64,000 nucleotides of DNA, taken from positions 1 to 64,000 of the forward strand of contig NZ_RDOJ01000017.1 in assembly GCF_003687725.1 (NCBI RefSeq). The letters run 5' to 3'. Every line of letters starts with the position of its first letter. The stretch's first letter is position 1. Shown piece by piece: positions 15,268-55,366 of this stretch. The translations under genes were made by a program, and so were the position numbers. Below the pieces are notes generated by a model. That model was not told the origin of the DNA and did no database searches. It worked only from the letters and a program-made list of their open reading frames with translations. This DNA is from Faecalibacter macacae (GTDB lineage Bacteria; Bacteroidota; Bacteroidia; Flavobacteriales; Weeksellaceae).

Positions 15268-18054
15268 TTAATTTTTATATTTAAGCAATACACTACCCGT
15301 AAAATTAGTATAACCAGGAATCTTAATTATATACCAATAACTATCTGACAATTGGAGTTTTTTGTTATATGTTCCATCCCAAACAACATTCTCATTATTC
15401 ATTGTTTTATCAACTAGTATTTTACCATAACGGTTATATATCTGTACTTCAACATCAGTAAATAACTCTAAACCATCAAGTTTCCATACGTCATTATACG
15501 AATCTGAATTTGGTGATAAAAAGTTAACCCACAAAAAGATAACTATATTTTTTTGCGTTATCACACAGCCTTTATCACTTTTAATAAATACAGTATAAAC
15601 TCCTGGCTGAAGATTTACGAAAACGTTTTCGTATTGCCAGTTTAAACCATCTAAACTATACTGTATACCATTTCCATTTGCTGTTACAACTATCTGATTA
15701 TTATCTAAGACTTTTATATCGACTATTTCAATTGGGGGATAATCTGAGACTGTAAACAATACTGATTTTTGACAACCATACTCATTTGTTAATACCAAAG
15801 TATAAGTACCCGGATTGATTACTTTAATTTCTTTTTCATCCAATGGTTGTTCTATGTCAATACCATTTAATCCATGCCACTGATAAGTATATCCTGTTGG
15901 AGCAGTAATTAGAATTGATTCGTTAGCACATTTAATTACATCTGGAATTACAATATTTGGAATAGTTGAAGGTTTAAAAGTTAATTCGATTACATCATCA
16001 CAAACAGATCCAAACACTTTTACTCTCGCGTAAATTTTTACTTCACGATCAAAAACAGAAAGTGTTGAAATAGAATTTCGATTTAAATCTAAATCAGCTA
16101 CAGAAGCGAAATAATCAATATTTATAATAGACGAATTATTTAATAATTCTTCTATCTTGACATTATAATTTGTAAGATAAACTAAAGTAGGACTTTCATC
16201 AACACAAATATATTCTGGCTGTAATTGGTATAATGAATTAGTAGAATGTTTCAACGTAATTGTTGTAAAGGTTGTACATAAAGCTACTGACGAAACACGA
16301 ACCCAAATCACCTCATTATTTGTAGTAGATTCATAAAAAGCTGGTAATTCATTCACTTGATCAATCGCATCCTGTTCAGTTTTGTAAAAGGAAAATGAAT
16401 AATTCTCATCCGAAATTTGACTTTTAGCTTGATTCAAATCAAATATAATTTTACCATCATTATCTGAATCGCACGCAATCAATTCAGCCGGAGAAGCTAC
16501 AGGATTACCATATACAATTGTAATATGATGCACATCTAACGATCCAAATTCAACTGTATTAACGGTTAATTGCACATTAAAAGCTCCAGCACTTGTGTAA
16601 TAATGAATTGGAGCTTCTTCTGTAGATGTTTCTCCGTCTCCAAAGTCCCATTTATATGATGTAATGGTCATATCTTCTTCCTGAAAGAAAGAAAATTGAA
16701 CTCCGTTTCCTAAACAAATTGCTGATAAACCTCCTAATGGTACAGATTCTATATGGTATGCTCCAGAATTGATAAAGGGAGGTAGACCATAGCGTGTATT
16801 AACATTGTATGAATAAAAAGGAAACAATACGCCTACTTCTTCGAACTGAGGATAACCATAATTATCAGCGTCTTTAATGTGCGATAAATGATTTTTGTAT
16901 TCCCTGCTTAAATATATCCTTTTATTAATTGCCAATTGTAGTGCACCACGAGCTGAAAATAAATTACTCGATGTATCTAAATCTGTATAATTTCTTAAAA
17001 TTCTTTTTGTTGCCTTAATCGGATCTGCTCCGCCCAAATAACTTTGATCATTTAATAAATTTTTAAATACCATTAATTCGCCATGATGCCATTCTCCAAC
17101 ATTATTCGAACTAATTGTGTGATAATCTATATTGGCATAAAAATTCTCATTATTACTAGAAAATTCTATTCCATATGGAGAGCCAGTATTATCTAATATG
17201 GTTTCATCAGAAACTATTCCTGTTAAATTATCAAATCGATATAAACCTAAATAACCTGGAAACGAATTCGCATAAGGACCATTCGTCGGATAATAATCAT
17301 CAGTTACTGTCATATTTCCAAACGGAATTTTATCATAATTTAAGTTAGATAAATGTGCAATTCCTAACGTCTTACCATTTGGTGAAATCTTTAAATACCC
17401 ACGTGCATTTACAGGGTATGAACGAATATCAATATCAGGTCCTATCTTAGATAAAACCGGACTGAGAGAAACACCATTACGTGTAACTAAATAGCTATAA
17501 AATTTATCACCAAAATGAGTAACAACCCAAAAATCTTTCAGATTACGATGCCTTACTGCAGCTATTTTTTCAGATACTAAGGGTAATAGATTATTATTTG
17601 CAGGATGAATTACAGCTCCTAAACCACCATCTAATTGCATATCTACAATATAATAATTCAATCCTTCATTTGTTGTGTATTCCGGTGTTGCACGGTCATC
17701 TGCACCAACCGTAAAGATGAAGTATTTCTTCTCATTTTCTGGATAAGGAACTACAATTGCAGATTGGGTACTTGAAGAATTACCTTTAAGATTGGTACCG
17801 TATAACATCACTTGATGATTGCGATTATATACTGTAGTTCCATCTGTATAAAACTGTAAATTTCCTTGCTTATCTGAAATTGAAGCACATCCTTCGCCTG
17901 TATATAATTGACCTCCTTCAACAGGTATTGCTTGATTCCCTTCAAAACGTAAGCCCATGTATTGACCAAAATACCAATTCACAGTTTCTAACTGTGCCTG
18001 AAGTCCAGAACATAATAATACTACAAGAAGAAAATAGTATTTTTTAAAAGTCAT
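15268..18054 (-). CDS. PKD-domain protein with T9SS type B sorting domain
   Basis: The signal peptide is MTFKKYYFLLVVLLCSGLQA. Residues about 25-430 look like a beta-propeller (NWYFGQYMGLRF, then repeated strands such as YLKISPNGKTLGIAHL). A PKD domain follows at about 455-520, with the hallmark WDFGDGETSTEEAP. Then come further Ig-like strands, including YTYQWHGLNG. The last 85 residues (FLSPNSDSYNDVWKLDGLEL ... IYNRYGK ... WDGTYN) are the gliding-motility-associated C-terminal domain, a type B T9SS signal. Such proteins are surface-anchored or released by T9SS, and many work with SprF-like partners; none is visible here. Substrate is unknown. Confidence 0.88.
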   Translation of the reverse strand: MTFKKYYFLLVVLLCSGLQAQLETVNWYFGQYMGLRFEGNQAIPVEGGQLYTGEGCASISDKQGNLQFYTDGTTVYNRNHQVMLYGTNLKGNSSSTQSAIVVPYPENEKKYFIFTVGADDRATPEYTTNEGLNYYIVDMQLDGGLGAVIHPANNNLLPLVSEKIAAVRHRNLKDFWVVTHFGDKFYSYLVTRNGVSLSPVLSKIGPDIDIRSYPVNARGYLKISPNGKTLGIAHLSNLNYDKIPFGNMTVTDDYYPTNGPYANSFPGYLGLYRFDNLTGIVSDETILDNTGSPYGIEFSSNNENFYANIDYHTISSNNVGEWHHGELMVFKNLLNDQSYLGGADPIKATKRILRNYTDLDTSSNLFSARGALQLAINKRIYLSREYKNHLSHIKDADNYGYPQFEEVGVLFPFYSYNVNTRYGLPPFINSGAYHIESVPLGGLSAICLGNGVQFSFFQEEDMTITSYKWDFGDGETSTEEAPIHYYTSAGAFNVQLTVNTVEFGSLDVHHITIVYGNPVASPAELIACDSDNDGKIIFDLNQAKSQISDENYSFSFYKTEQDAIDQVNELPAFYESTTNNEVIWVRVSSVALCTTFTTITLKHSTNSLYQLQPEYICVDESPTLVYLTNYNVKIEELLNNSSIINIDYFASVADLDLNRNSISTLSVFDREVKIYARVKVFGSVCDDVIELTFKPSTIPNIVIPDVIKCANESILITAPTGYTYQWHGLNGIDIEQPLDEKEIKVINPGTYTLVLTNEYGCQKSVLFTVSDYPPIEIVDIKVLDNNQIVVTANGNGIQYSLDGLNWQYENVFVNLQPGVYTVFIKSDKGCVITQKNIVIFLWVNFLSPNSDSYNDVWKLDGLELFTDVEVQIYNRYGKILVDKTMNNENVVWDGTYNKKLQLSDSYWYIIKIPGYTNFTGSVLLKYKN

Positions 18055-18271: not shown

Positions 18272-18356
18272 GGAGAGTTGGCAGAGTGGTCGAATGCGGC
18301 AGTCTTGAAAACTGTTGAGGGTCATACCTCCGGGGGTTCGAATCCCTCACTCTCCG
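18272..18356 (+). tRNA. tRNA-Ser (anticodon UGA)
   Basis: The 85-base RNA folds with acceptor GGAGAGT / ACTCTCC and discriminator G. The anticodon arm GCAGT-CTTGAAA-ACTGT carries TGA at 18306-18308. The variable arm is long, as expected for a class II serine tRNA, and the T arm contains GGTTCGAATCC. CCA is not encoded. It decodes UCA and, with wobble, other UCN codons. Its 3' end is the left copy of a direct repeat whose second copy is at 20474, so the gene appears to be an integration site that stayed functional. Confidence 0.97.
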
Positions 18357-18407
18357 CTAAAAGCCTTGAAGTTTATCCTTCGAGGCTTTTTTTATGGAAT
18401 AAAATTA
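18345..18407 (+). repeat. Left direct repeat (candidate attL) at tRNA-Ser 3' end
   Basis: The sequence starts CCTCACTCTCCGCTAAA and continues through the tRNA terminator hairpin to GGAATAAAATTA. It reappears at 20474-20534 with one substitution and a two-base deletion. The first 12 bases are the tRNA 3' end, the rest is flanking sequence. A tRNA 3' end repeated at the far side of a gene cluster is the classical trace of tyrosine-integrase insertion. Confidence 0.8.
18358..18395 (+). terminator. Terminator of tRNA-Ser
   Basis: AAAGCCTTGAAG pairs with CTTCGAGGCTTT around a short loop and is followed by a T run. It starts two bases after the mature tRNA. A second copy lies at 20489-20520. Confidence 0.85.
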
Positions 18408-18499
18408 CTTCATCAATCATCCCTATTACAAATTTGTAATAAACCCTTACCGAAATTAATTTTAAATATTTATATTTATCTTATCGTAAAATTTAATGA

Positions 18500-19657
18500 T
18501 TGAGGATTTTAAGTTTAAATATAATATCTCCTTTCGGTTTAAAACACACAGGATATCAACCTTTACAACAAGTAATTATTACACCAACAGATCCAATAAA
18601 TGGTGCGCGTACATCAATTGTTGCTAAAGCTGCTATTGGTGGTGATTTTGGTTTAATTGAAAATACTCCTATTACAGGTTCTGCAACGTACAATTACAAA
18701 TACAATGGTAAAGAACTACAAGAGGAGTTCAACATAAATCTTTACGACTACGGCGCAAGAAACTACGATCCTGCAATTGGACGTTGGTTCAACATTGACC
18801 CGCTGGCGGAGAAAATGAGACGCCACTCGCCTTACAACTACGCTTTTAATAATCCCGTTTTCTTCATAGACCCTGATGGGATGCAGGCTGAAGGTTGGGG
18901 TAATAGAATAGATAAAAATGGTACGTCATATTGGGAATACAGTAAACATATAACTAAAGATAATTTTGAAAGTTTAGGATTTTCTGAATATATGGAATCG
19001 GGAAATATATTTAGTACAACAAATGGTGAAGCTGATGGTAATTATAACTATTCCTTAAATGCTGATGGTTCAGTTATAGATAATCAAGGTTCATCTATGA
19101 GTAGTGAATTTAAAACAGGGGCAGGAACTGTAATATCAAATATAGATAATGATACCTCAATGACAGGGTTTGCCCGCAGAGCTTACATGAGTGGTAATTA
19201 TGATTCTAGATTTTCACCATACAATCCTGATGCTTTGAGTTTAGGAACAGGAGTTACTCTAACCAAGTATAATGTTAGCTATTCATTTGAAGGAGGAATT
19301 ATTTTTGCTCCTGGAGATATAGGATTATATTCTTCTTCTTCAATTTCAAGGGGATACGGAACAACACCTGGAATAGGATTTCATGGGGTGAATATTGGAT
19401 ATCACGATAGACTAGAAGGTAATGATCAAAAAAATATGTTAAAGAATATAGCTGGTACTTCTGTTAATGCCTTTATAGATGGTGGACCTATTGGATATAG
19501 TCATGGGCGAAGCTTAGACGAGCGAAAAGAATTAGATAGCAGAGGAACTATGAGTAATACAATAACTTTAGGAGTTGGAAAATTTTCAGGAGTTGGTGCA
19601 GGAGTTTCAGTTTCAGAAACACGAATTATCTCTTTAGTAACAGGTATAACATATTAA
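18500..19657 (+). CDS. RHS-core fragment with unassigned C-terminal (toxin-like) domain
   Basis: Residues about 10-20 ([11 protein letters not shown]) and the signature [20 protein letters not shown] (about 84-103), followed by [19 protein letters not shown], are the end of an RHS-repeat core. This is the shell that normally encloses and self-cleaves a C-terminal toxin. The large repeat region is missing; the frame opens with a TTG at 18500 and has no signal peptide. The 255 residues after DPDGM are hypervariable-tail material: glycine-rich, with [15 protein letters not shown] and a last segment of alternating strands ([18 protein letters not shown]). I do not recognise a known nuclease or deaminase motif. 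Ten bases downstream is a small lipoprotein, a plausible immunity partner. It is probably an orphan cassette that can recombine into a full RHS gene, or a decayed remnant. Confidence 0.75.
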
Positions 19658-19666
19658 ATTTAGATA

Positions 19667-20032
19667 ATGATGTATAGATTAATTATTTTTAGTATTATAT
19701 TATTTTTATATTCTTGTAAAATTGATTATAAACATATTAAAGAAAAAGAATTAGAATATTCCGTAAATATTATTTCTAATAAAAATTATAAAGATGATAG
19801 ATTCCAGCCTCCTTTTTTTTCAATTATAGGAAAAAATCCAGAAACAAATAAAATAGATACGTTTGAGGATGGAAGATGGTTTTCTAGTATTAGTGATTCA
19901 ATAGAAATAGGAGACACTGTTTATAAAAAGAAAGGAGATAATTTCTTTTTAATTAAGAAAAAGAACCTTATTTTAAAAGTAAAAGATAAATCAAATAAAA
20001 AAGGAGAATTTATTGAAATTTTAAAAAGATAA
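19667..20032 (+). CDS. Small putative lipoprotein, possible RHS immunity partner
   Basis: The 121-aa product begins MMYRLIIFSIILFLYSC, a signal peptide with the lipobox LYSC, so Cys17 would be lipidated. The rest is lysine-rich and hydrophilic, with WFSSISDSIEIGDTVYKKKG as the most distinctive stretch; similar I-G-D-S/T motifs occur, as I recall, in small lipoproteins next to RHS genes of Flavobacteriia. It starts 9 bases after the RHS-tail stop and must be co-transcribed. An immunity function against the upstream tail is inferred from position and cell-envelope location only. No known domain is recognised. Confidence 0.6.
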   Translation: MMYRLIIFSIILFLYSCKIDYKHIKEKELEYSVNIISNKNYKDDRFQPPFFSIIGKNPETNKIDTFEDGRWFSSISDSIEIGDTVYKKKGDNFFLIKKKNLILKVKDKSNKKGEFIEILKR

Positions 20033-20087
20033 TAATTAAACAAAACTCCGCTCCCGCACGATTGTATCGTGTGGCAAGTAATAATAA

Positions 20088-20122
20088 AACAATCCTACAA
20101 AGTAATATTTGTGGGGTTTGTT
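20088..20122 (+). terminator. Hairpin downstream of the RHS/lipoprotein pair
   Basis: AACAATCCTACAAA pairs with TTTGTGGGGTTTGTT around GTAATA with one mismatch and a bulge, then a T-rich stretch follows. It probably ends the RHS-lipoprotein transcript. Confidence 0.55.
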
Positions 20123-20175
20123 ATTTTATAAAAACTATTATTTTTTAATATCTTCAACTAAATACCTAAGACTAA

Positions 20176-20267
20176 TGAGCAGAAATTATAAATTTCATAA
20201 TCCCAACGGATTATATTTTGTCAATTTTGCTGTGGTAGAATGGTTAGATGTCTTTACTAGGAAATAA
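20176..20267 (+). pseudogene. N-terminal remnant of a REP-associated (Y1) transposase
   Basis: From ATG at 20176 the sequence encodes MSRNYKFHNPNGLYF and then, possibly after a one-base shift near 20220, VNFAVVEWLDVFTRK before a TAA near 20265. I recognise this as the start of the Bacteroidota Y1_Tnp (IS200-like, RAYT) transposases, which continue for about 150 more residues to a H-V-H motif and catalytic tyrosine. Nothing after the TAA continues the match, so only the first 30 codons remain. It shows the island was once richer in mobile genes. Confidence 0.65.
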
Positions 20268-20344
20268 TATTCTACATCATAATTTTTAACGATTACCTTA
20301 CCAAATTTTGGCTAAGTAAATCACAATAAAAACATTAGAATTTG

Positions 20345-20413
20345 TACCTTTGTAACTCAATCAAGAAGTTCATTTTACATAAATTTTTAGAAATAAGCGA
20401 CCAAATAGCGACC
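20345..20413 (+). promoter_or_regulatory. Orphan -7 box and paired AGCGACC repeats near right boundary
   Basis: TACCTTTG (20345-20352) matches TAnnTTTG but no gene follows before the right att copy. Downstream AGCGACC occurs twice (20396-20402, 20407-20413), 11 bases apart, one helical turn. This layout fits the promoter and arm-type binding sites of a lost integrase. That reading is inference. Confidence 0.35.
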
Positions 20414-20473
20414 TTTTAAAACCGAAGGTTTTCATTCAGCTATTAATGGTACTTTCAAAATATAGTTACGGAG

Positions 20474-20534
20474 CCTCACTCTCCGCTAAAGGCCTTGAAG
20501 TTTACTTCGAGGCTTTTTTTATGGAATAAAATTA
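20474..20534 (+). repeat. Right direct repeat (candidate attR)
   Basis: CCTCACTCTCCGCTAAA, a terminator hairpin and GGAATAAAATTA repeat the sequence at 18345-18407. The last three bases are the stop codon of guanine deaminase, so this copy sits at the native chromosomal junction. Its hairpin serves as terminator of the deaminase gene. Confidence 0.8.
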
Positions 20535-54660: not shown

Positions 54661-55366
54661 AAGTAAAATTTTTAAATGCGACCATCATTTCTCTTTTTCC
54701 TGGAGGACCAGGTCGTTTTTTAACAGTAAAACCATTCGCTTTCATTCCACGCTTAAAAGTTCCTTTCGCTGCATAAGTTGTAATAATGCTAATTTCTTTG
54801 GTTAAATTTGCTACTATTGTTAACAATTCTTCTTCCCATAAATCAGGCTGAACTTGCGATCCAAACGCATCAAAATAAACCAAATCAAAATCAGAATCCG
54901 AGCTATCTTTTAAATCAAAAAAATCTTTCTCAACTTTTTTTAATGTAAAATTTGAAGAAATTTTTATTTCATTTTCCCATTCAGCATTAAACATTTTTTG
55001 ATAATAAGTATAAAATTCTTCTCTTCTAGATTCAAACTCAGGATAAAATTTAAAAACATCATCAAAATAATTTATGACTTCAAATTCTTCTGCAGAAACT
55101 GGATATTTTTCTACACCAATATATGTAATATTTAACTGTTTTTTTTCCGATTCTAACAACGTAATAAAAGAATTTAATCCTGTACCTAAGCCAATTTCTA
55201 GAATTTTTATAGGTTTTTTTAGTTCAAAAAAGAAATTTAATCCGTTATTAATAAAAACATGGAAAGCTTCCTGCACAGCCCCATGAATAGAGTGATAGGT
55301 TTCGTTCAAGTCCTCAATATGAATGGTTTTAGAACCGTCCTCTGTCTCTACGATTATTCGTTTCAT
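54653..55366 (-). CDS. mnmD: tRNA 5-aminomethyl-2-thiouridine methyltransferase MnmD
   Basis: The SAM-binding motif KILEIGLGTGLNSFITLLES (about 58-77), FDLVYFDAFGSQVQPDLW, ITTYAAKGTFKRGMKANGF and KKRPGPPGKREMM are those of the methyltransferase half of MnmC, here as a stand-alone MnmD. It converts nm5s2U34 to mnm5s2U34 in tRNA. 237 aa fits a lone domain. It acts on the same nucleotide as MnmA (27856-29049). Overlaps the Nudix gene by 8 bases, giving translational coupling. Confidence 0.92.
   Translation of the reverse strand: MKRIIVETEDGSKTIHIEDLNETYHSIHGAVQEAFHVFINNGLNFFFELKKPIKILEIGLGTGLNSFITLLESEKKQLNITYIGVEKYPVSAEEFEVINYFDDVFKFYPEFESRREEFYTYYQKMFNAEWENEIKISSNFTLKKVEKDFFDLKDSSDSDFDLVYFDAFGSQVQPDLWEEELLTIVANLTKEISIITTYAAKGTFKRGMKANGFTVKKRPGPPGKREMMVAFKNFTYE

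What the first reader, a model, noticed from the sequence alone, without database searches (positions are those of the whole stretch)
18500..20032. Orphan RHS toxin tail with possible lipoprotein immunity partner
Seen: the end of an RHS core (with DPDGM) fused to a 255-residue unassigned tail, no repeat region, no signal peptide, followed 9 bases later by a lipoprotein gene. Known: RHS proteins enclose a variable toxin, and orphan tails with cognate immunity genes serve as recombination cassettes. Inferred: this is a cassette of a toxin/immunity pair; a lipoprotein immunity protein would imply a toxin acting in the envelope. The tail ([15 protein letters not shown] and a glycine-rich end) has no motif I know.
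Basis: partly seen in the sequence, partly recalled or inferred. Interest (0 to 1): 0.7.

Follow-up and report, generated by a model that had tools for sequence, protein, structure and literature searches.

The report
Vap-like RHS toxin tip with immunity
A silent spare part for a bacterial weapon: a toxin tip whose predicted shape resembles a membrane-damaging virulence protein of a horse pathogen, stored beside a membrane-anchored protein that probably protects its owner, in an exchangeable cassette next to a tRNA gene.

The parts
18272..18357 (+). tRNA-Ser (anticodon TGA), anchor of the cassette
   Evidence: ARAGORN
18345..18407 (+). Left direct repeat: last 13 nt of tRNA-Ser plus the terminator-like DNA after it
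   Evidence: the repeat finder; 95% over 63 nt to the right copy; recurs beside RHS tips in G008 and G001
18472..18529 (+). Leader DNA fused to the truncated RHS gene; similar leaders precede orphan RHS tips in G001 and G008
   Evidence: left ends printed and compared by eye; 93% to C12 of the own genome over window 18472-18530
18530..18883 (+). Truncated RHS core, from PFGLKH to DPDGM
   Evidence: TIGR03696; 93% DNA identity to the C11 RHS gene over 18530-19234; motif positions
18884..19213 (+). Pre-toxin linker, shared with the full-length C11 RHS gene
   Evidence: blastn, protein alignment
19214..19234 (+). SPYNPDA codons: the junction where the exchanged block begins
   Evidence: C11 homology ends at 19234; G006 and G011 cassette homology begins at 19217
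19235..19654 (+). Variable toxin-like domain; the modelled stretch is 19181-19654 and is predicted as an eight-stranded Vap-like beta-barrel
19667..20032 (+). Lipoprotein, probable cognate immunity protein
   Evidence: family found downstream of the tip in 24 of 24 loci
20048..20470 (+). Right-end DNA shared with the end of the C11 tRNA-Ser island (96% and 92%), with an internal deletion at about 20265
   Evidence: blastn
20175..20267 (+). 30-codon remnant of a transposase-like gene whose longer reading frame is at L004 9784-9527
   Evidence: the transposase name is recalled, not searched
20397..20413 (+). GCGACC direct-repeat motif, also at both ends of the C11 island and in L165; possible recombinase arm site (inference)
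20474..20534 (+). Right direct repeat of the tRNA-Ser 3' end and terminator-like DNA

Best explanation
This is a displaced, silent cassette of a polymorphic RHS toxin system: a truncated RHS core, an exchangeable toxin tip and its immunity gene. SHOWN by comparison: the tip plus lipoprotein is one exchange unit, from the SPYNPDA codons to just after the lipoprotein stop, set between DNA nearly identical to the genome's full-length RHS locus; and in every locus found this tip family is followed by this lipoprotein family. PREDICTED: the tip folds as an eight-stranded barrel like the Vap proteins of Rhodococcus equi. INFERRED: a full-length RHS protein, which has a signal-like N-terminus and sits in a gene row with a T9SS-sorted protein, carries such a tip to a neighbouring cell's envelope, where the barrel inserts in or permeabilises a membrane. 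The envelope-anchored lipoprotein binds the barrel in the producer and blocks it. The window copy has no visible export signal, so its toxin is silent, while the lipoprotein may still protect the cell. Homologous recombination with the C11 RHS gene (about 700 bp at 93% on one side, about 490 bp at 92-96% on the other) could swap toxin and immunity together.
Against: No toxicity, secretion or binding data. The Vap link is structural only: the PF05526 model did not match the tips in the 13 tip-bearing genomes searched (of 20), and gave only 6 sub-threshold matches in 395 order genomes; Foldseek alone gave no hit at E 1e-3 or better. One model of one tip was tested. A shared fold does not prove shared activity; VapB has the fold but permeabilises membranes more weakly (PMC10100859). 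Lipoprotein relatives often stand alone. 4 of the 13 seeds of A3 were picked because they lay upstream of a lipoprotein. One weak A1 hit (G125, E 8.3e-4) has no lipoprotein match and was not recovered by A3. The Mantel correlation can reflect shared ancestry. The genome tool scored only up to 13 lipoprotein candidates per genome, so some lipoproteins may be missed. My counts use the 101 lipoprotein rows with E up to 5.9e-7; weaker rows were left out.
Confidence: 0.62

Rival explanations
1. Toxin/immunity pair, but the barrel is not membrane-active: it binds a periplasmic or surface ligand (lipid, peptidoglycan precursor or outer-membrane protein) and kills by blocking it.
For: Vap papers suggest a binding function from the barrel and its loops (PMC4089522, passages; PMC8329714, start of abstract in the listing). 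VapB shares the fold but is less membrane-active (PMC10100859). All genetic evidence for the pair fits equally.
Against: VapA and VapN are reported to neutralise phagosome pH and VapA to permeabilise liposomes (PMC10100859).
Confidence: 0.25
2. The tip is a surface adhesin or ligand-binding domain and the lipoprotein an assembly or anchoring partner, with no toxin involved.
For: T9SS-sorted protein in the same gene row; no known catalytic family matched; the fold resembles binding proteins.
Against: Polymorphism at the RHS tip, unit exchange of tip plus small gene, tandem partner genes and orphan partner genes are the pattern of toxin/immunity systems (PMC3482391, passages).
Confidence: 0.1
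3. The window copy is only decay: the right end of a tRNA-Ser island left after a large deletion, with no role as a reservoir.
For: Truncated RHS gene, transposase-like remnant, internal deletion against C11, no start codon known to be used (first in-frame ATG at 18815). Another orphan tip of the genome (L004 4623-3637) does not share the same RHS start point.
Against: Both reading frames are intact. Six orphan tips in three genomes start at the same RHS point after a similar leader, and most lie between the same repeats, so these end points are not random.
Confidence: 0.3

Closest known systems
RHS / CDI polymorphic toxin systems with orphan toxin-immunity cassettes (Zhang et al. 2012, PMC3482391; passages seen)
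   Same: RHS core, variable C-terminal domain, immunity gene directly after it, displaced cassettes, tandem and orphan immunity genes
   Different: Tip and immunity match no Pfam or NCBIfam family credibly; Vap-like barrel predicted; envelope-anchored immunity; cassette bracketed by tRNA-Ser repeats. The words Vap, VapA and Rhodococcus equi do not occur in the held part of that text (300,000 of 357,715 characters).
Rhodococcus equi Vap family (VapA, VapB, VapD, VapG; PF05526)
   Same: Predicted eight-stranded barrel, short helix between strands 4 and 5, glycine-rich
   Different: No sequence match to PF05526 at the tips; fused to an RHS core instead of following a signal peptide and a disordered region; has a paired immunity-like gene; the window tip lacks the C-terminal tryptophan described for Vaps (PMC4118825)
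TANFOR polymorphic toxins of Bacteroidetes (PMC7073777; outline and one section read)
   Same: Bacteroidota, immunity gene downstream, T9SS-sorted neighbours
   Different: The full-length protein here carries DUF6443 and RHS repeats; TANFOR was not among the hits
tRNA-integrated genomic islands and att-flanked cis-mobilizable segments (terms recalled)
   Same: tRNA 3'-end direct repeats on both sides; the same genome has a 38 kb segment with an integrase-like gene at another tRNA-Ser copy
   Different: No integrase-like frame was seen in the 2.1 kb segment; excision not tested

Membership tests
RHS polymorphic toxin-immunity system | RHS-associated core domain | tested here: met
   TIGR03696 E 6.8e-17, over cut-off
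RHS polymorphic toxin-immunity system | C-terminal domain varies on a constant core by recombination | tested here: met
   mosaic with sharp border at SPYNPDA
RHS polymorphic toxin-immunity system | specific small gene directly downstream of the tip | tested here: met
   24 of 24 loci; genus 6 of 6 against 0 of 87
RHS polymorphic toxin-immunity system | export route for the full toxin | tested here: inconclusive
   none visible in the window copy; the C11 copy has a signal-like N-terminus by inspection and a T9SS-sorted protein in its gene row; no signal predictor was run
RHS polymorphic toxin-immunity system | tip is toxic and the partner neutralises it | not testable with these tools
   needs expression
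R. equi Vap family (PF05526) | eight-stranded two-Greek-key barrel with helix between strands 4 and 5 | tested here: met
R. equi Vap family (PF05526) | sequence match to the family model | tested here: not met
   no match at the tips in 13 of the 20 tip-bearing genomes; best 0.42, elsewhere. In 395 order genomes 6 matches at E up to 0.01, none over cut-off.
R. equi Vap family (PF05526) | own signal peptide, disordered N-terminus, C-terminal Trp after glycines | tested here: not met
   RHS fusion; the window tip ends ...VTGITY, by inspection; disorder was not predicted
R. equi Vap family (PF05526) | membrane permeabilisation | not testable with these tools
   needs liposome or cell assay
Outer-membrane meander barrels (NspA, OmpX type) | next-neighbour eight-stranded barrel | tested here: inconclusive
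TANFOR toxins | N-terminal TANFOR domain | tested here: inconclusive
   no such hit in three C11 proteins; I did not check that the libraries hold the model
tRNA-integrated att-flanked element | direct repeats of the tRNA 3' end on both sides | tested here: met
tRNA-integrated att-flanked element | excision or integration by a recombinase | not testable with these tools
   no integrase-like frame in the 2.1 kb segment; empty site not found

The most novel reading that the evidence does not exclude
The Vap barrel, known as a virulence fold of R. equi acting on macrophage membranes, is also used as an interbacterial toxin: Weeksellaceae RHS proteins carry Vap-like barrels that permeabilise a competitor's membrane, and a dedicated envelope-anchored immunity protein blocks the barrel. 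Cassettes are stored and exchanged at tRNA-Ser.
Probability: 0.45. Interest if true: 0.78.

Novelty: new variant of a known kind. Interest (0 to 1): 0.64.

Why it matters
How the Vap barrel acts on membranes is unsettled; [quoted passage not shown] A bacterial system with the same predicted fold and a natural partner that probably inhibits it would make the question testable in harmless laboratory bacteria and liposomes. It would also add a toxin family and an immunity family, now without a Pfam or NCBIfam model that matches them, to Bacteroidota RHS weapons, and show how such cassettes are stored beside tRNA genes and carried on plasmids.

Tried and rejected

Claims about print rest on the held library and on the rows shown: 20 of 95 papers listed; 1 of 1; 11 of 11; 10 of 22; 2 of 2; 12 of 29; 0; 10 of 24. 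None of the listed titles and abstract starts joins Vap proteins to RHS toxins; I opened five papers (PMC3482391, PMC7073777, PMC10100859, PMC4118825, PMC4089522) and searched a sixth (PMC10903876) for terms. Subscription papers and preprints are not covered.

Full report
What is there. The window holds a tRNA-Ser gene (18272-18357), a truncated RHS gene (18500-19657) and, 9 bases on, a lipoprotein gene (19667-20032). The RHS part begins at PFGLKH (18530) and carries the end of the RHS core (TIGR03696, E 6.8e-17) up to DPDGM. No signal peptide is visible, and the first in-frame ATG is at 18815. Direct repeats of the tRNA-Ser 3' end and the terminator-like DNA after it lie at 18345-18407 and 20474-20534, 2.13 kb apart.

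A cassette by comparison. The same genome has a full-length RHS gene on contig C11 (1206 aa; DUF6443, RHS repeat, TIGR03696), followed by a homologous lipoprotein, in a row with a 1064-aa RHS-repeat protein and a T9SS type A sorting protein. Window 18530-19234 is 93% identical to it. Window 20048-20269 and 20262-20533 are 96% and 92% identical to the DNA beyond its lipoprotein. Between these, window 19217-20034 matches instead, at 72%, the tip plus lipoprotein of G006 and G011. The left border falls on the codons for SPYNPDA (19214-19234) and the right one just after the lipoprotein stop. So the exchange unit is the last ~147 residues of the RHS tip plus the lipoprotein, and the roughly 110 residues before it are a constant linker.

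Pairing. Profile A3 (13 tips) found 24 tip loci in 20 of 320 family genomes (26 rows, two pairs merged). Profile A2 (7 lipoproteins) found matches in 95 of 320. All 24 tip loci have a lipoprotein match downstream on the same strand, smallest gap -4 to 121 bases. Eleven of the 24 loci were not seeds of A3, and 11 of 11 hold; 4 of the 13 seeds had been chosen because they lay upstream of a lipoprotein, so the full count is partly circular. In the 14 genus genomes (93 RHS cores), 6 of 6 cores with this tip and 0 of 87 others have the lipoprotein within 1.7 kb (Fisher 1.3e-9). These counts use the 101 lipoprotein rows with E up to 5.9e-7; weaker rows were left out. The tool scored at most 13 lipoprotein candidates per genome, so misses are possible; a local HMM scan of fetched loci, without that limit, gave 6 of 6 against 0 of 17 RHS frames with the lipoprotein directly downstream. 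Distances of tips and partners correlate (Mantel r 0.75, 19 pairs), which shared ancestry could also produce.

Results against. The lipoprotein family often stands alone: of the 24 matches counted in the genus, 10 follow this tip, 2 more have an RHS core within 4.5 kb, and 12 have neither. A weak A1 hit in G125 (E 8.3e-4) has no lipoprotein match and is not among the A3 hits. Orphan and tandem immunity genes are described for polymorphic toxins (PMC3482391, passages); here four tandem lipoproteins follow the tip in L027 and two in L028. L027 lies on G012:C8, which has the length of Empedobacter tilapiae contig 16 (44480), and L028 on G006:C42, which has that of Faecalibacter rhinopitheci scaffold 7 (179963).

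The immunity candidate. 25 aligned relatives share G55, G82, D83, T84, K87 and K98. 23 of the 25 have the cysteine of the lipobox; the other two, and some relatives outside the alignment (L092, L094), have an N-terminal hydrophobic anchor instead (by inspection). Either anchor puts the protein at a membrane. No interpretable fold match was found.

Where cassettes live and move. On C11 a tRNA-Ser (54678-54763) is followed by an integrase-like gene, other cargo and the RHS row, and the tRNA 3' end repeats at 16849-16909, outlining a 38 kb island. The window's right end matches that island's right end. Of 16 matches to the repeat pattern in 3 of 14 genus genomes, 5 lie in intact tRNA-Ser genes and 8 of the other 11 lie within 1.3 kb of an RHS tip or its partner gene. 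Six orphan tips in three genomes start at the same RHS point, PFGLKH or PFGLKY, after a similar leader (by eye). This was not a full survey: one of the six (L163 11540) has no repeat directly before it, and the second orphan tip on C11 (L004 4623-3637) reaches further up the RHS gene. A motif GCGACC-n-AATAGCGACC (up to 2 mismatches) sits near both ends of the C11 island, near the window's right end and before a repeat in L165. I could not tell site-specific insertion from homologous exchange or deletion. One of the two cassettes closest to the window's lies on the E. stercoris plasmid pLPY02, which has relaxase and mobilization genes as well as T9SS-sorting and DUF6443 proteins (PLSDB calls it non-mobilizable).

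Verdict. Toxin/immunity cassette: about 0.85. Envelope as the site of action: about 0.7. Vap-like fold: about 0.8. Membrane permeabilisation blocked by the lipoprotein: about 0.45. All functional steps are inferred.

Noticed in passing
L004 4623-3293 (G000 C11): A second orphan RHS tip with a different glycine-rich tail, followed by a 113-aa membrane protein, in the same genome.
   Followed up: partly
L004 8938-8402: 178-aa frame that runs through the island's right repeat and encodes a membrane protein whose end resembles the immunity proteins by eye; similar DNA follows the tRNA-Ser in L167.
   Followed up: no
G000 C11:16849-54763 (L106, L107, L004): 38 kb tRNA-Ser island carrying what look like type I restriction genes and DUF262/GmrSD-like genes (names recalled, not searched) along with the RHS row.
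   Followed up: no
L166 4421-7566 (G001): Segments between tRNA-Ser repeats holding small membrane-protein genes, including one nearly identical to the gene after the tips in L162 and L163.
   Followed up: no
L164 4305-12385 (G008): Segment between tRNA-Ser repeats with what look like a regulator and efflux-type genes (by inspection), so the repeats bracket other cargo too.
   Followed up: no
L023 12185-12488 (G000 C12): 300 bp with the left leader (93%) and the right flank (79%) of the cassette but no RHS tip between them: a possible emptied site.
   Followed up: partly
L027 5092-13211 (G012): Locus with several RHS tips, one followed by four tandem lipoproteins, another by two related membrane proteins.
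   Followed up: partly
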